A stretch of DNA of 64,000 nucleotides from Lactococcus paracarnosus (GTDB lineage Bacteria > Bacillota > Bacilli > Lactobacillales > Streptococcaceae): NCBI RefSeq assembly GCF_006770285.1, contig NZ_CP017195.1, positions 992,001 to 1,056,000 of the forward strand, in the 5' to 3' direction. Positions within the stretch are counted from its first letter, which is position 1, and every line of letters begins with the position of its first letter. Below the pieces are notes generated by a model that worked only from the letters and a program-made list of their open reading frames with translations, was not told the origin of the DNA and did no database searches. A program made the position numbers and the translations under genes. This document shows positions 56,380 to 64,000 of this stretch, piece after piece.

Positions 56380-57294
56380 ATGTTAACTAAACTTGAAATA
56401 AATGAAAAACTATCTGATATAACTATAAAATACAATGAGAATCTTGCTAACTATACCTATACAAAAGTGGGTGGCCCTGCTGATTTTTTAGCCTTTCCAA
56501 CTGACAAAAAACAGTTACAAGCAATCGTAAGGCTTGCAAACGCGACACAGACCCCTTTTATCGTGCTCGGTAATGCCAGTAATCTCATCGTTCGAGATGG
56601 TGGGATACGTGGGTTTGTTATCTTACTTGAGAAAATGGATGCTGTGCGGGCAAATGGTTATGTAATTGAAGCACAAGCTGGTGCGAACTTGATCAAGACA
56701 ACCCAATTAGCCTTAGCTAATTCTTTGACTGGCTTTGAATTTGCCTGCGGAATTCCAGGATCTATCGGGGGTGCAGTCTTTATGAATGCGGGTGCTTACG
56801 GTGGTGAAGTGGCTAATATCTTGTCAAGTGTCCAAGTCATGGATCATACAGGTGAGTTTTCTGTTATCAGTGTAGAAGACTTACAGTTTGGTTATCGTAA
56901 ATCTCTTTTACAGAGCGAGCATTACATCGCGATTTCTGCTAAGTTTTCTTTATCAACTGGTGATCATCAGCTGATAAAAGCTGAGATGGATCGCTTGACC
57001 CATCTACGTGAGTTAAAACAGCCATTGGACTACCCAAGTTGTGGATCAGTCTTTAAAAGACCTGTTGGCTATTTTGCTGGCCAATTAATTCAGGATGCGA
57101 ACTTGCAAGGTCATCAGATTGGTGGCGTACAAGTATCTGAAAAACACGCTGGATTTATGATTAATTTAGGCCATGGTACAGCAAAAGACTATGAAGCCTT
57201 GATTGCTGATGTGATTGCACAAGTTGAACAAGCCTCTGGTGTTAGATTAGAGCCAGAAGTTAGAATATTAGGAGAAGAGACTCGTGACGCATAA
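56380..57294 (+). CDS. murB: UDP-N-acetylenolpyruvoylglucosamine reductase
   Basis: FAD- and NADPH-dependent reductase making UDP-N-acetylmuramate for peptidoglycan. 304 residues. The FAD-binding [20 protein letters not shown] block, [26 protein letters not shown] and the C-terminal substrate motif [10 protein letters not shown] (type II MurB serine region) are all present. It has a weak ribosome site. Its last 11 bases overlap the potA start, an arrangement also known from L. lactis. Confidence 0.97.
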
Positions 57295-58447
57295 ACCGAT
57301 CATTAAATTTGAAAATGTGTCAAAGTCGTTTGATGATAATGGAGAGTTAATCCTAAAAGACATCAATTTTGAGTTAGAAAGCGGCAAGTTTTATACGCTA
57401 CTCGGCGCTTCAGGCTCTGGGAAGTCAACGATTCTAAATATCATTGCTGGTCTGACTGATGCGACGAGTGGGGATATCTACCTTGATGGTGAGCGAATAA
57501 ATGACGTACCGATTAATAAACGGGATGTCCATACAGTCTTTCAAAACTATGCACTTTTACCACATAAAAACGTCTTTGATAATATCGCCTTTCCACTCAA
57601 AATACGCAAGATCGATAAGCATGAAATCGAAAAGCGTGTCATGGAAGCACTAAAATTAGTTCGGCTAACAGGACTTGAACAGCGACGGATTCAAAAATTA
57701 TCCGGTGGTCAAAAACAACGGGTGGCCATTGCCAGAGCAATCATCAACCAACCTAAGGTTGTCCTACTAGATGAACCTTTAAGTGCCCTTGACTTAAAAC
57801 TGCGAACTGAAATGCAATATGAACTGCGTGCCTTACAGCAAAAACTAGGGATTACTTTTGTATTTGTTACCCATGATCAAGAAGAGGCCCTTGCGATGAG
57901 TGACTGGATTTTCATTATTAATGAAGGTGAAATCATCCAATCTGGTACACCAGTTGATATCTATGATGAACCGATTAACCGCTTTGTCGCGACCTTTATC
58001 GGGGAATCAAATATCGTTAAGGGCATCATGCTAGGTGACTATCTAGTCGAGTTTAATGGCAAAAAGTTTGAAGCCGTCGATGGTGGCATGCGACAAAATG
58101 AAGCCGTTGATGTCGTGATACGTCCTGAAGATTTGCGCCTAACTTTACCAGATGAAGGTAAGCTACTTGTTCGCGTTAAAACCCAGCTATTTCGGGGTGT
58201 GCATTATGAAATCATCGCTAGGGATGACTTAGGGCAAGAGTGGATGATCCACTCGACACGCCAAGCCATTGTTGGTGAAGTCATCGGACTTGACTTTGAT
58301 CCAGAAGATATTCATATCATGCGTCTGAATGAGACAGAAGAAGATTTTGATGCGCGGATTGAAGAATATGTAGAAGAAGAGACGATTGAGGCGGGCTTAA
58401 TCAATGCAATAGAAGAGGAGATGGTAGTCGATGGTACAAAAGACTAG
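57284..58447 (+). CDS. potA: Spermidine/putrescine ABC transporter ATP-binding protein
   Basis: ATPase that powers polyamine import. 387 residues. Walker A is [13 protein letters not shown] (about 38-50), the signature is [15 protein letters not shown], Walker B is [12 protein letters not shown], and a C-terminal TOBE regulatory domain starts near 240. The C terminus is acidic. The start is a GTG inside the murB 3' end with AGGAGAAGAGA upstream. It leads a polyamine operon in which potD is displaced by two extra genes. Confidence 0.96.
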
Positions 58448-58465
58448 TAACAACCCATATCAAAC

Positions 58466-59266
58466 ATGACTAAGAAAGTTTATTTATCTGCTTTACCTTA
58501 CTGTCTCTGGCTCTTTTTATTTGTTTTAGCGCCAATCGCTTTGTTGGTTTATAAATCATTTTTTGATATTCATAATCAATTGACGCTAGCCAATTATGCA
58601 ACCTATTTTACCAGCTGGACGTATTTAAAAATGTCACTTAATTCACTGATTTATGCAACGATCATCTCATTTGTGACACTGGTCGTTAGCTATCCAGCAG
58701 CTTACTTTTTAACAAAACTCAAACATAAGCAACTTTGGTTGATGCTGATTATCTTGCCGACTTGGATTAATCTCTTACTGAAAGCCTATGCCTTCATCGG
58801 TATTTTTGGTAAATCAGGTGCGGTCAATCAATTTCTATCTTTCTTTGGTATCGGTAGCCAACAATTGCTGTTTACAGATTTTGCCTTCATCTTTGTTGCC
58901 TCATACATTGAGATACCTTTTATGATTTTACCCATTTTTAATGCCATAGATGATATCGATCAGAATTTGGTTAAAGCAGGCTATGATTTGGGCGCAACAC
59001 GGCTTCAAAATTTCACCCAAATTATTTTTCCACTGTCAATGAATGGGGTAAGATCTGGTGTACAGGCTGTCTTTATTCCTAGTCTAAGCTTATTCATGTT
59101 GACGCGACTAATCGGTGGTAATCGAGTGATTACGCTTGGTACTGCCATAGAAGAACATTTTCTGGTCACACAAAACTGGGGAATGGGTGCAACGATCGGC
59201 ATGGTATTGATTGTGACGATGTTTATGGTCATGTTCTTGACTCGCAAGAGAGGGGATAAATCATGA
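58466..59266 (+). CDS. potB: Spermidine/putrescine ABC transporter permease PotB
   Basis: 266-residue membrane channel subunit with six helices. The EAA-type loop is NLVKAGYDLGATRLQNFTQIIFPLS (about 170-195). The ATG has no clear ribosome site of its own. Instead a 12-codon frame starting at an ATG at 58431, behind GAGGAG, ends in the TGA of ATGA at the potB start. This suggests translation by re-initiation. The potC start overlaps its stop (ATGA). Confidence 0.95.
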   Translation: MTKKVYLSALPYCLWLFLFVLAPIALLVYKSFFDIHNQLTLANYATYFTSWTYLKMSLNSLIYATIISFVTLVVSYPAAYFLTKLKHKQLWLMLIILPTWINLLLKAYAFIGIFGKSGAVNQFLSFFGIGSQQLLFTDFAFIFVASYIEIPFMILPIFNAIDDIDQNLVKAGYDLGATRLQNFTQIIFPLSMNGVRSGVQAVFIPSLSLFMLTRLIGGNRVITLGTAIEEHFLVTQNWGMGATIGMVLIVTMFMVMFLTRKRGDKS

Positions 59267-60042
59267 AACGACAGTTTAAATTTGAAAAAGCCTATCTGAT
59301 TTTTGTCTTTGCCTTGCTCTATCTGCCAATCTTTTATTTGATTTTCTATGCCTTTAACAAGAATGGCAATATGAATGCCTTTACTGGCTTCACCTTAACC
59401 TATTTTAAGGCCTTATTTGCGGACAGTCGGTTGATTTTGATCGTCGTACAAACCTTCTTCCTTGCTTTTTTGTCAGCCTTATTAGCGACAATTATCGGGA
59501 CTTTTGGCACGATTTATATACACCAGACCAAGGCAAGACGTCAGAATACCTTATTAGCCTTAAATAGTGTGCTATTAGTTTCACCAGATGTCATGATTGG
59601 GGCTAGTTTCCTGATTTTGATGACGTCAGTTGGCTTTAAACTGGGCTTTGCATCAGTCTTGTTGGCACATATCGCCTTTTCTATTCCTATCGTTGTATTA
59701 ATGGTTTTACCCAGACTGCAAGAAATGGACCAGGACATGGTAAATGCGGCTTATGATTTAGGGGCTAGCCATCGCCAAACGCTAAGCGAAGTGATTCTAC
59801 CCTTTTTGACACCAGGTGTCATCGCCGGTTTCTTTATGGCTTTTACCTACTCCTTGGATGATTTTGCGGTTACCTTTTTCGTAACAGGTAATGGCTTTTC
59901 CACTTTATCAGTCGAAATCTACTCAAGAGCACGCCATGGCATATCTCTAGAAATCAATGCACTATCAGCTCTCGTGTTTATGCTTTCAATTTTGCTTGTA
60001 ATCGGGTATTATATGATTATGAGGAGTTCAGATGAAAAATAA
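59263..60042 (+). CDS. potC: Spermidine/putrescine ABC transporter permease PotC
   Basis: 259-residue second channel subunit with six helices. The EAA loop MVNAAYDLGASHRQTLSEVILPFLTPG lies at about 162-188. It overlaps potB by 4 bp and the following TPM-domain gene by 11 bp, so all are translated together. Confidence 0.95.
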   Translation: MKRQFKFEKAYLIFVFALLYLPIFYLIFYAFNKNGNMNAFTGFTLTYFKALFADSRLILIVVQTFFLAFLSALLATIIGTFGTIYIHQTKARRQNTLLALNSVLLVSPDVMIGASFLILMTSVGFKLGFASVLLAHIAFSIPIVVLMVLPRLQEMDQDMVNAAYDLGASHRQTLSEVILPFLTPGVIAGFFMAFTYSLDDFAVTFFVTGNGFSTLSVEIYSRARHGISLEINALSALVFMLSILLVIGYYMIMRSSDEK

Positions 60043-60874
60043 TTTTACTAGAAAAATAATCCTGATTACGGTTATGATCCTCGCTTTCGGTGCTCTACTT
60101 GCTTTTTTTAATCGATCAGGTAATGGTCTAGGTAAAGATCCCATTCCTAAACTGACTTGGCAAGCCAATACCCATGTCTATGACAAGGCTAAGATGCTAA
60201 GTGAGCCGACTAAAAGCAGCTTAAACCAGTCCCTGGGTGAGTTAGATAATCGTAAAACGACACAATTTATTGTGTTGACGGTCGACTCCCTGGGCGGTCA
60301 ATCGATTGAAACCTATGCTAATACTGTATTTAGTAAAACAGGGATTGGTGACAAGGCAACTGATAATGGCCTACTGATGCTGATTGCTAAAGATGAAAAG
60401 AAGGTTTGGGTTGAAGTTGGTCAAGGCCTTGAAGGTGACCTCAACGATGGTAAAGTAGGTCGTATCCTAGATGATAATTTTGTTCCCTATCGCAGTAAAG
60501 GGGATTATGATACGGCTGTCTTGAAAACGACTGCCGCCCTCACAGGTGTCTTAACAGGCACCACACCTGCAACGGATACAGCAGATAAATCTGCTAATAC
60601 TGATAGTGATACATCTGATAGTGATGAGCGAGATACAGGTAGTCCAATCGGTGGCTTGATCTTATTGGGTCTTATTATCGCTGTAGTAGTTGGCCTTATT
60701 GCAACTGGTCATGGGGATATCTTACTCTGGATCTTGATGTTGTTCTTCAATAATCGTGGCGGCGGGTCAGGTGGTGGTTACGGCGGCGGCTCAGGCGGCT
60801 TCGGTGGCGGGTCATCTGGCGGTGGTGGCGGATTTGGCGGCGGGTCATCATCAGGTGGTGGTGCCGGTCGATAG
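60032..60874 (+). CDS. TPM-domain membrane protein with glycine-rich tail (YgcG-like)
   Basis: 280 residues. An N-terminal helix (about 9-26) precedes a TPM domain on the outer side (VYDKAKMLSEPTKSSLNQSL, DNGLLMLIAKDEKKVWVEVGQG, about 47-180). An acidic Asp/Ser/Thr linker, a second helix region (about 208-240) and a Gly/Ser tail made of GGGSGG-type units follow. TPM proteins of this layout are frequent partners of LemA. Biochemical function is unsettled, and roles in membrane-protein quality control have been proposed for relatives. It is unusual here for lying inside a polyamine transport operon, overlapping potC by 11 bp. Confidence 0.87.
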   Translation: MKNNFTRKIILITVMILAFGALLAFFNRSGNGLGKDPIPKLTWQANTHVYDKAKMLSEPTKSSLNQSLGELDNRKTTQFIVLTVDSLGGQSIETYANTVFSKTGIGDKATDNGLLMLIAKDEKKVWVEVGQGLEGDLNDGKVGRILDDNFVPYRSKGDYDTAVLKTTAALTGVLTGTTPATDTADKSANTDSDTSDSDERDTGSPIGGLILLGLIIAVVVGLIATGHGDILLWILMLFFNNRGGGSGGGYGGGSGGFGGGSSGGGGGFGGGSSSGGGAGR

Positions 60875-60938
60875 TCATCTCGCACTGCTTTAGAGCAAGC
60901 TGTTTTAAAGCGAGTTTATATATAGAAAAGAGAAAATA

Positions 60939-61523
60939 ATGGAATTTATCAAGAAGAATAGTATTGTTGTCGGTATCATTGGTGTATTAGTTGTGATCAT
61001 CATTGCCTTTTTCTCAATCGGCAACGGGATTGTTAAAGAAGAAAACAGTGTTGACTCGGCTTTTGCGGATATCGATACACAACTCCAACGTCGTAATGAC
61101 TTAATACCAAACTTAGTATCGACTGTCAAAGGCTATGCGGCACATGAAGAAAAGATTTTCACAGCCATTTCAACTGCACAAAGTGCTATGACAAAAGCTG
61201 AATCAGTCACTGACAAAGCAGCTGCAAATGATCAAGTATCTTCAGCGCTTAATGGCTTATTACGTCTCCAAGTCAGCTATCCTGATATCAAAGCAGACAA
61301 ACAATTTACACAGTTAGCTGATGAATTGGCTGGTACAGAAAATAGGATTGCTGTTGCACGTACACGTTATAATGATGTCGTTAAAACCTATAATAATAAA
61401 GTAACGTTATTTCCAACATCTATCGTTGCAGGCATGCGTGGTGCAACTAAAAAAGAGTTCTTCAAAGCCAGTGAGTCAGCTAAAAATACACCTTCTGTTG
61501 ACTTCGGTAATGACAAGAAATAA
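60939..61523 (+). CDS. lemA: LemA family protein
   Basis: 194 residues with one N-terminal membrane helix (about 8-27, N terminus likely outside) and a helical bundle. The bundle carries the family blocks NSVDSAFADIDTQLQRRNDLIPNLVSTVKGY and ENRIAVARTRYNDVVKTYNNKV. AGAAAAGAGAAAATA is the ribosome site. It pairs with the TPM gene 64 bp upstream and abuts potD, which begins at the next base after its stop. The molecular role of LemA is not established. Confidence 0.95.
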   Translation: MEFIKKNSIVVGIIGVLVVIIIAFFSIGNGIVKEENSVDSAFADIDTQLQRRNDLIPNLVSTVKGYAAHEEKIFTAISTAQSAMTKAESVTDKAAANDQVSSALNGLLRLQVSYPDIKADKQFTQLADELAGTENRIAVARTRYNDVVKTYNNKVTLFPTSIVAGMRGATKKEFFKASESAKNTPSVDFGNDKK

Positions 61524-62597
61524 ATGAAGAGATTAGTCTACTTTATCGGTGGTATCATTGCCATCATTGCCTTACTAGGCGGCTTGTCCGTGAAACTCTC
61601 AGCAGATAAAGGTAGCTCGGGTATCAATAACCAATTGACCATCTATAACTGGGGAGATTACATAGACGAAGCACTATTGCGTCAGTTTGAAAAAGAGACA
61701 GGCTACAAGGTCAACTATGTGACATTTGACTCAAATGAAGCCATGTATACCAAAGTCAAACAGGGTGGTACAACTTATGATATCGCAATTCCCAGCGAGT
61801 ATATGATCGATAAGATGAAATCCGAGAAACTCCTATATCCACTGGACTATAGTAAAATAAAAGGGCTGAAAAATATTGATCCTAAATTCTTGGATCAGCC
61901 ATTTGACCGAGAAAACAAGTATTCGGTTCCATATTTCTGGGGAACACTAGGGATTGTTTACAACGATAAGCTGGTCAAAACGCCACCAGCGCATTGGAAA
62001 GACTTGTGGTCACCAGACTACAAGGATAATCTGATGCTAATCGATGGGGCGCGTGAAATAATTGGCATGGGTCTAAATGAACAGGGCAGTAGTCTGAATA
62101 GCAAGGATATGGGGCAGCTGAATCAGGCTTATGATCGCCTCAAGGACTTGACACCAAATATTAAGGCAGTCGTTGCTGATGAAATCAAGCAGTACATGAT
62201 TAATAATGAGGCAGCAGCTGCAGTTACCTTTTCTGGAGAAGCCTCTGAGATGGTCAGCCAAAACAAGGACTTGCACTATGTGGTGCCCAGTGAAGGCTCA
62301 AATCTGTGGTTTGATAATATCGTCATTCCCAAAACAGCTAAGAACTTTACGGCAGCTTATGCCTTTATCAATTTCATGTTAACTCCTAAGCATGCCGCTC
62401 AAAATGCTGAGTATGTTGGCTATGCAACGCCTAATGCAGCAGCTAAAAAATTACTACCAAAAGACATCCTGGAAGATAAGGCATTTTATCCGAGTGATCA
62501 AGCGATGAAAAATTTGGAAGTTTATAAAAATTTAGGACCAGAATACTTAGGTATCTATAATGACTTATTTTTGTCGATCAAGATGTATCGGAAATAA
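61524..62597 (+). CDS. potD: Spermidine/putrescine ABC transporter substrate-binding protein
   Basis: 357-residue extracellular polyamine-binding protein, with ITIYNWGDYIDEALLRQFEKE-like and GGTTYDIAIPSEYMIDKM blocks and the closing GIYNDLFLSIKMYRK. The N terminus is an uncleaved-type membrane helix (about 5-24) without a lipobox cysteine. This is also the case in streptococcal homologues, so it is probably membrane-tethered. It completes the PotABCD importer but is separated from potC by 1.5 kb of TPM and LemA genes. The start directly abuts the lemA stop. A terminator follows. Confidence 0.95.
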   Translation: MKRLVYFIGGIIAIIALLGGLSVKLSADKGSSGINNQLTIYNWGDYIDEALLRQFEKETGYKVNYVTFDSNEAMYTKVKQGGTTYDIAIPSEYMIDKMKSEKLLYPLDYSKIKGLKNIDPKFLDQPFDRENKYSVPYFWGTLGIVYNDKLVKTPPAHWKDLWSPDYKDNLMLIDGAREIIGMGLNEQGSSLNSKDMGQLNQAYDRLKDLTPNIKAVVADEIKQYMINNEAAAAVTFSGEASEMVSQNKDLHYVVPSEGSNLWFDNIVIPKTAKNFTAAYAFINFMLTPKHAAQNAEYVGYATPNAAAKKLLPKDILEDKAFYPSDQAMKNLEVYKNLGPEYLGIYNDLFLSIKMYRK

Positions 62598-62640
62598 TTG
62601 TTTTTATCTGGTATTTGGAACACCTCTAAAATTAAACTGA

Positions 62641-62667
62641 AAACAAGCCGTGTGCTTGTTTTTTTGT
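62641..62667 (+). terminator. Terminator after potD
   Basis: AAACAAGC pairs with GCTTGTTT around CGTGT and runs into T residues. It closes the murB-pot-lemA unit. Confidence 0.85.
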
Positions 62668-62994
62668 TGTCCAAATAAGGTAAATTATTTTACTTAGCCT
62701 CTTATTCGAAATTAGGTCAGTTTTATAATATTGATTGATAAATTTATCTAATATTTATTTTTCGAAAAATATAACTTAATTTTTGACAAACTATAATGCC
62801 TTATGTATACTTAAGTGAAAATATTGATTAAAAAAAAAGTTTATTTCACTTTTTGACGTGTGTAGAAAAGAGAAACATGTATAGAATAATATCCTCAATC
62901 TTGATAAAAGAGTCAAAGGCAAGTAGGAACGTCCCAATATTTAAGTAGGGAGGTTATCAAAAATGCTTATTTAAAAAGAAAGGAATGACTTGTC
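62668..62994 (+). promoter_or_regulatory. Promoter and long leader of the LXG gene
   Basis: TTGACA (62783-62788) and TATACT (62806-62811) with a 17-bp spacer form a near-ideal promoter. The transcript would have a leader of about 177 bases. In it lie a 23-codon frame (62877-62948, starts MYRIISSILIKESKAS) with a weak ribosome site, and a GGGAGG followed by the three-codon frame ATG CTT ATT TAA. The rest of the interval is A/T-rich without recognised features. Confidence 0.6.
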
Positions 62995-64000
62995 ATGGGA
63001 TTAATTTATAACCCAAGTGAATCAGAAGAGTTGGTATCAAATTTCAATGCTAGTATTGCTACTTGTGAACAAATGATTTCGGATTTAAAGAATGGGAATG
63101 AGCACCTTGTTGGTGCACTGAATAGTAAGCAATTGAGTGGAGCAGCTTTCACTGCAGGACAAGCTTTGTTTACACAGCTGGTTATACCAGCTGTCAATAA
63201 ATCTGATACCGCCATTCATGAATTGAAAGCGAAACTACAACAATATAGTCAATATACTAGGGATGCAGGTGGTGAAATTCTTGATGAAGATAAATTGAAC
63301 GAGCAACTTGAAGCATTATGGCATCAGTAAGCCTTAATCACTTCACAAATTAGGCTTTATCAAGCTCAGGCAAGAGTATCTGAAACACCAGAGTTGACAG
63401 CAATGTGCTACAGCTATACGAGTACACTCACAAATTTCATAAATACCGTTCAAGAAGATATTCGAAGAGTCGAGGAAAAACTCAAGAAACTTCATGAAAT
63501 TGATATGAAGATTGCCACTTTGTTTAATGGTATTTCGAATAAATTTTCAATTATTTCCGATGGTATTTTGACAATCAATAATGCGAGTTTTGATAAAACT
63601 GGTAAATTTGTTATAAAGGCAAGTAGTAAAAACTTTGATAGAATTAAAGCATTTGTCAGAGATATTTATAGTAGAACAAAAGATGAGACTTTAAATACTA
63701 TTTTTGAGGAGACCATTCAAGATGGTGTCAAAAAAAATACGGATGTTGCAGTTAAAATAGCCGTAGAGAATGTTTGGAAAAATCGATACACAACTGAACT
63801 TGCAAGTGGTAAAATAATGGGAAAAGTATCGGGTGCTACAGCATCGGCCATGAAAGATGCAGAAGGATTAGCATTAAAATCGGGGAAAAGTTTAGGTAGG
63901 TGTGTATCTGGTGGATTTTCTGTTATTGGTGGTGTTATGGACGGTTTCTCGGATTATCAACACGACAAAAATGTAGGGAAAGCTATTGCACATGGGGTAC
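62995..64000 (+). pseudogene. LXG-domain type VII secretion substrate, interrupted by TAA and cut by window end
   Basis: The first 111 codons (62995-63327) give an LXG-type N terminus (MGLIYNPSESEELVSNFNAS, QLSGAAFTAGQALFTQLVIP), which targets toxins to the ESX/type VII system. TAA stands at 63328-63330. The same frame then stays open to the window end (224 codons) with ITSQIRLYQAQARVSETPEL and the coiled EEKLKKLHEIDMKIATLFNG typical of the rest of an LXG domain. A glycine-rich stretch (GGFSVIGGVMDGFSDYQHDK) follows, like the approach to a toxin domain. Either the gene is inactivated by one nonsense change or the N-terminal part is made alone. AAAGGAATGACTTGTC gives the ribosome site. Confidence 0.75.

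What the first reader, a model, noticed from the sequence alone, without database searches (positions are those of the whole stretch)
57284..62597. TPM-LemA pair embedded in the polyamine importer operon
potA, potB and potC are followed, with 11-bp overlap, by a TPM-domain membrane protein and a LemA protein, and only then by potD, which starts at the base after the lemA stop. potABCD is normally contiguous. TPM and LemA are a recurrent pair of unknown role. Tight overlaps suggest they are co-expressed with, and may act on, the polyamine transporter or the membrane processes it affects.
Basis: partly seen in the sequence, partly recalled or inferred. Interest (0 to 1): 0.5.

Follow-up and report, generated by a model that had tools for sequence, protein, structure and literature searches.

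The report
Membrane gene pair inside polyamine-importer operon
In one branch of the lactococci and a related genus, two widespread membrane-protein genes of unclear function (TPM and LemA) sit inside the operon for a putative polyamine importer, an old and conserved arrangement that suggests they are made together but does not show that they help transport.

Summary
It is not an assembly quirk: 12 of 12 genomes held for the genus (Lactococcus piscium/raffinolactis group) and 4 of 4 of a second, unnamed Streptococcaceae genus have it. Twenty of 20 loci read from eight other genera keep potABCD contiguous. Trees fit one ancestral insertion; the coding joins stayed coupled and both genes are under purifying selection. 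LemA-TPM is itself a common free-standing pair: 57 of 60 sampled Bacillota LemA loci have TPM close by, 0 of 60 have pot genes. A second linkage exists in Tissierellaceae, lemA-TPM-(regulator)-potABCD, in 8 of 15 genomes with a strong LemA match, although in Tissierella sp. P1 a promoter-like site lies between pair and importer. Most likely: a known envelope module captured by the pot operon and locked in by translational coupling, co-expressed but not an essential importer part. Direct action on PotABCD is possible and untested.

The parts
56380..57294 (+). murB; last 11 nt overlap potA
   Evidence: NF010480 386.1 bits, cut-off 259
57284..58447 (+). potA, ABC ATPase with TOBE domain
   Evidence: best match spermidine/putrescine ATPase NF043075, 475.6 bits, cut-off 550 not reached
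58466..59266 (+). potB, permease
   Evidence: best match PotB NF007044, 174 bits, cut-off 348 not reached; Pfam BPD_transp_1 24.8 bits, cut-off 26.4 not reached
59263..60042 (+). potC, permease; 4-nt overlap with potB
   Evidence: best match PotC NF007047, 221.5 bits, cut-off 326 not reached
60032..60874 (+). TPM-domain membrane protein: N-terminal helix about 3-31, TPM domain 49-171, two further predicted helices about 206-240, Gly/Ser-rich tail
   Evidence: model is of low confidence (mean pLDDT 56.7)
60875..60938 (+). 64-nt gap with a hairpin 60886-60912 that the scan lists as terminator-like; its tail has at most three T in a row and it is not conserved outside the closest relatives, so it is not treated as a terminator
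   Evidence: (6 such sites found, 5.2 expected by chance)
60939..61523 (+). lemA: N-terminal membrane helix running into a helical bundle
   Evidence: 2etd, TM-score 0.93 by target length
61524..62597 (+). potD, substrate-binding protein; TAA-ATG junction with lemA, no clear Shine-Dalgarno sequence by eye
   Evidence: (best match PotD NF007048, 273.4 bits, cut-off 582 not reached)
62639..62663 (+). terminator-like hairpin with T run after potD
   Evidence: one of the same 6 sites

Best explanation
A known envelope module, the TPM-LemA pair, was inserted once at the potC-potD junction in a common ancestor of the Lactococcus piscium group and a second Streptococcaceae genus, and has been kept since. 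The insertion left the reading frames coupled: TPM starts inside the end of potC, and potD starts at the lemA stop, probably by termination-reinitiation. The six proteins, and MurB as the seventh, are therefore likely made together. The pair most likely works as an extracytoplasmic, membrane-anchored maintenance or assembly factor for envelope proteins, made whenever the importer is made; it is not a core part of the importer. Shown here: gene order, conservation, close joins at sequence level, purifying selection, single-clade trees, the pair without pot and pot without the pair. Inferred: co-transcription, reinitiation, topology and the maintenance role.
For: 12 of 12 and 4 of 4 genomes of two genera carry the order. 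The 16 pot-embedded LemAs form one clade, bootstrap/SH-aLRT 100/99; in a joined PotA-D tree the two genera are sisters, SH-aLRT/bootstrap 78/82. potC/TPM overlap of 8-14 nt and lemA/potD spacing of -1 to +2 nt in 16 of 16, counted by eye. On the + strand no promoter-like site between potA and potD exceeds 9 of 12, and the count in the region is at chance level (29 found, 24.6 expected). dN/dS 0.07-0.22 for TPM and 0.03-0.08 for lemA in six pairs of genomes, not all independent. TPM close to LemA in 57 of 60 Bacillota loci, with no other neighbour family in more than 10 of 60. TPM domains are linked to PspA envelope-stress operons and proposed as assembly chaperones (PMC11237479, section 19 read).
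Against: No transcript or protein data. The sister relation of the two genera has only moderate support (78/82). The scan lists a terminator-like hairpin between TPM and lemA. The maintenance role is borrowed from proposals in other lineages. A second linkage to potABCD in Tissierellaceae (8 of 15) suggests that the link to the importer may be more than one capture event.
Confidence: 0.55

Rival explanations
1. TPM and LemA are dedicated auxiliary factors of the importer: their outward-facing domains help PotABC assemble with, or stay stable beside, PotD, much as Psb32/TLP18.3 assists photosystem II repair.
For: Insertion exactly between permease and binding-protein genes, kept in 16 of 16 carriers; separate linkage lemA-TPM-potABCD in 8 of 15 Tissierellaceae genomes with a strong LemA match, with a HTH-cupin regulator between in 7 of 8; TPM and, separately, polyamine-metabolism genes occur around PspA.
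Against: potABCD is contiguous without the pair in 20 of 20 other Streptococcaceae loci. PotD is present in 23 of the 24 Tissierellaceae genomes searched (24 of the 28; four linked ones were not searched again), including the five with the pair elsewhere and others without a strong LemA match. A 12-of-12 promoter-like site lies between TPM and the regulator in Tissierella sp. P1. No complex was modelled.
Confidence: 0.22
2. Passenger: the pair landed in the operon by chance and stays only because removing it would break the coupled translation of potD; polyamines have nothing to do with its function.
For: Trees fit one event in Streptococcaceae. The operon tolerates other inserts: a further membrane-protein gene lies between potA and potB in 5 of 10 named loci. 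The pair has no fixed neighbour elsewhere.
Against: Independent linkage in Tissierellaceae. Retention in 16 of 16 genomes. Rough chance estimate, my own inference: among the 16 non-lactococcal loci first looked at, one chance pot neighbour within 5-6 kb has a probability of a few percent.
Confidence: 0.23

Closest known systems
potABCD spermidine/putrescine importer operon
   Same: same four gene types in the same order; Pot families are the best matches in NCBIfam
   Different: two foreign membrane-protein genes between potC and potD
LemA-TPM gene pair of Bacillota and other phyla
   Same: both protein families close together (57 of 60 loci, 56 of them directly adjacent)
   Different: order is TPM then LemA, as in the 3 Streptococcus-like loci and 3 of 60, where lemA-TPM is the common order; and the pair is embedded in another operon
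YdjH (TPM) with PspA, Bacillus subtilis ydjFGHL (PMC11237479, section 19 read)
   Same: TPM-domain membrane protein in an envelope-related operon
   Different: LemA is not mentioned in that paper's main text; none of the ten window proteins scanned against Pfam matched PspA
Psb32 / TLP18.3
   Same: TPM domain; assists a membrane complex (from PMC11237479 and its reference titles)
   Different: window protein scores 55.1 bits against the Psb32 equivalog, cut-off 160

Membership tests
LemA family | PF04011 over gathering score | tested here: met
   183.4 bits, cut-off 26.2
LemA family | helical-bundle fold as in 2etd | tested here: met
   profile E 1.4e-71; Foldseek E 2.3e-10, TM-score 0.93 by target length
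TPM-domain proteins | PF04536 over gathering score | tested here: met
   127.8 bits, cut-off 22.1; solved relatives 2kw7, 7tbr, 5anp
TPM-domain proteins | ATPase/ADPase activity reported for one member | not testable with these tools
   that paper was seen only as a reference title in PMC11237479
Psb32 | NF047379 equivalog cut-off | tested here: not met
   55.1 bits, cut-off 160
MamQ | NF040966 equivalog cut-off | tested here: not met
   92.6 bits, cut-off 250
PotABCD polyamine importer | ATPase, two permeases and binding protein with Pot families as best match | tested here: met
PotABCD polyamine importer | NCBIfam equivalog cut-offs of the best-matching Pot models | tested here: not met
   475.6/550, 174/348, 221.5/326, 273.4/582 bits; the same operon in other Streptococcaceae was not scored, so this may say little
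PotABCD polyamine importer | transports polyamines | not testable with these tools
   needs an uptake assay

The most novel reading that the evidence does not exclude
TPM-LemA is an auxiliary complex of polyamine importers, recruited independently in two Bacillota lineages, that holds or repairs PotABC-PotD at the membrane and ties polyamine uptake to envelope stress. This would give the LemA family a concrete client.
Probability: 0.18. Interest if true: 0.65.

Novelty: new variant of a known kind. Interest (0 to 1): 0.38.

Why it matters
LemA and TPM proteins are widespread and their roles are unsettled. A lineage in which they are locked inside an operon of predictable function, plus a second lineage with a different layout, gives a defined and cheap test of what the pair does: polyamine uptake and envelope stress in clean mutants of a food-associated lactococcus. 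If the pair proves to be a passenger, the case still shows how coupled translation can freeze an insertion for the life of a genus.

Tried and rejected
Assembly artefact or strain oddity: rejected, 16 of 16 genomes in two genera. Hairpin between TPM and lemA as a terminator or attenuator: the scan lists it, but its tail has at most three T in a row, and by eye it recurs only in the three closest rows (window, L016, L004); L017 and L018 have a different inverted repeat, others none that I saw. Origin from the separate TPM-LemA pair of Streptococcus-like genomes: not supported, that pair branches with other Lactobacillales pairs. A shared third partner of the pair elsewhere: none in more than 10 of 60 loci. 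Resemblance of LemA to Vipp1/PspA: ranks 2-4 of Foldseek have E 0.2-0.3 and rmsd 24-26, treated as noise. The TPM model is of low confidence and was used only for a rough topology. (phylum of the window) redrew largely the same genomes as and no loci were taken from it.

Limits. Lactobacillales: 60 LemA loci were taken (56 outside g3), chosen by me for spread of families, some cut by contig ends. dN/dS used stop-to-stop frames for the relatives, and dS is near saturation in the pairs of the window with L022 and L023, where four pot values could not be computed.

Full report
What is there. The window lies at 992001-1056000 of a single-contig genome of 2,265,140 bases. Its LemA is 99% identical to that of Lactococcus piscium DSM 6634. 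The reported genes and coordinates are exact: potA 57284-58447, potB 58466-59266, potC 59263-60042, TPM 60032-60874, lemA 60939-61523, potD 61524-62597. Pfam confirms the TPM domain (127.8 bits) and LemA (183.4 bits) well over cut-off. The four transport proteins have Pot families as best NCBIfam matches but do not reach the equivalog cut-offs, so polyamine specificity is inferred. At E <= 0.001 the genome has one LemA and one TPM match.

How conserved. In the genus (g1), 12 of 12 held genomes have LemA, and in all 12 it sits between TPM and potD, behind potC. In a sample of 147 Streptococcaceae genomes, TPM occurs in 76, PotD-like proteins (E <= 1e-60) in 139 and LemA in 119. Genus g3 (4 of 4: G013, G022, G029, G035) has the same order, murB-potABC-TPM-lemA-potD. 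Twenty potABCD loci of eight other genera (g2, g4-g10) were read directly and none has TPM or LemA inside.

One insertion. In a tree of 100 LemA proteins, a 100/99 branch (bootstrap/SH-aLRT) separates 48 rows, of which 45 have TPM nearby and 3 do not (L029, L030, L039), from 52 rows without a detected TPM. The 16 pot-embedded LemAs form one clade (100/99), split into g1 and g3, apart from the Streptococcus-like TPM-LemA pairs and from Tissierella sp. P1. In a tree of joined PotA-D, g1 and g3 are sisters with moderate support (SH-aLRT/bootstrap 78/82). One insertion in their common ancestor is the simplest reading; early transfer between the two genera is not excluded.

Coupling and selection. 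In all 16 genomes TPM starts inside potC (overlap 8, 11 or 14 nt), and potD starts from 1 nt before to 2 nt after the end of the lemA stop (counted by eye, starts assigned by homology). In g1 no clear Shine-Dalgarno sequence precedes potD by eye. The TPM-lemA gap varies in length and sequence. A terminator-like hairpin is listed there in the window, shared only with the two closest relatives. On the + strand no promoter-like site inside the operon exceeds 9 of 12, and the count in the scanned region is at chance level. In six pairs of genomes dN/dS is 0.07-0.22 for TPM and 0.03-0.08 for lemA, against about 0.05 or less for the pot genes where it could be computed. TPM evolves fastest but is under constraint.

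The pair elsewhere. Of 60 LemA loci taken from Lactobacillales (four of them g3), the 56 outside g3 have no pot gene in the fetched stretch (about 6 kb each side, some cut by contig ends), and 13 of the 56 have TPM beside LemA. Of 60 phylum-wide loci, 57 have TPM close to LemA (56 adjacent, one about 1.2 kb away) and 0 have pot genes within about 7 kb. Clustering of neighbours within 5.5 kb found no other family in more than 10 of the 60.

A second linkage. Tissierella sp. P1 has lemA-TPM-(HTH-cupin regulator)-potABCD. In its family, 15 of 28 genomes have a LemA match at E <= 1e-40; 8 of these 15 have the pair directly upstream of potABCD. Seven of the 8 have the regulator between. Of the seven unlinked loci, two (L224, L225) carry a distant LemA without a detected TPM, and some are cut by contig ends. 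The LemA tree of the family needs two changes of the label, for example one gain and one loss. Against a tight functional unit: a promoter-like site with 12 of 12 consensus bases lies between TPM and the regulator in Tissierella sp. P1 (10 sites found there, 9.8 expected, most with 9 of 12), and PotD is found in 23 of 24 family genomes searched, including unlinked ones. The linkage came up because I followed one of 16 non-lactococcal loci; by my own rough estimate a chance neighbour in such a set has a probability of a few percent, so it is suggestive only.

Structure. LemA is predicted with good confidence (mean pLDDT 82.0) as a membrane helix running into the helical bundle of Thermotoga LemA 2etd. 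TPM is related to solved TPM domains 2kw7, 7tbr, 5anp and, weakly, 3ptj; its own model is poor. From the basic residues at the N-termini I infer that both domains face outwards, where PotD also works.

Literature. PMC11237479 (section 19 and passages read) places TPM proteins with PspA, places polyamine-metabolism genes around PspA in other operons, and proposes a chaperone-like role in assembling membrane-linked complexes; LemA is not in its main text. [quoted passage not shown] PMC13236525 (passages) reports a lemA and a TPM gene both raised in an sppA mutant of Flavobacterium. No paper on LemA or TPM inside pot operons was seen in searches. Two of these lists were capped: one search showed 20 of 409 papers, and one search showed 20 of 59, in none of which LemA occurs. 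The library holds only open-licence papers.

Verdict. The finding is real, conserved and evolutionarily old. Action on the transporter is possible but unproven; a captured envelope module held by coupled translation explains the evidence with fewer assumptions.

Noticed in passing
L017:2381-3565, L021:2397-3575, L025:2375-3568; also a gap of that size in L018 and L019: A further inserted membrane-protein gene (about 394 aa; DUF998 match in L017 and L021, no Pfam match in L025) lies between potA and potB in 5 of 10 named relatives; it is absent from the window.
   Followed up: partly
window 62995-63330 and 63394-64000: Downstream of potD, behind the best promoter-like site of the scanned region (62783-62811, 11 of 12), a WXG100-like protein (20.3 bits, cut-off 44.85) and an unassigned ORF running off the window (no Pfam match): a possible type VII secretion locus.
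   Followed up: no
L217:2645-4235: Two TPM genes in tandem between lemA and potABCD, without the HTH-cupin regulator.
   Followed up: partly
L022 and L023, about 1-230: In L. plantarum a rarD-like stretch cut by the edge of the locus lies upstream of the complete rarD gene, a possible tandem copy.
   Followed up: no
L172 and L174, TPM gene: The TPM proteins printed for genus g3 carry a longer basic N-terminal tail before the first membrane helix than the window's.
   Followed up: no
window 57284-57294: potA starts inside the end of murB (11 nt), so the operon also looks coupled to a cell-wall gene; murB lies upstream of potA in most but not all of the other loci read.
   Followed up: partly
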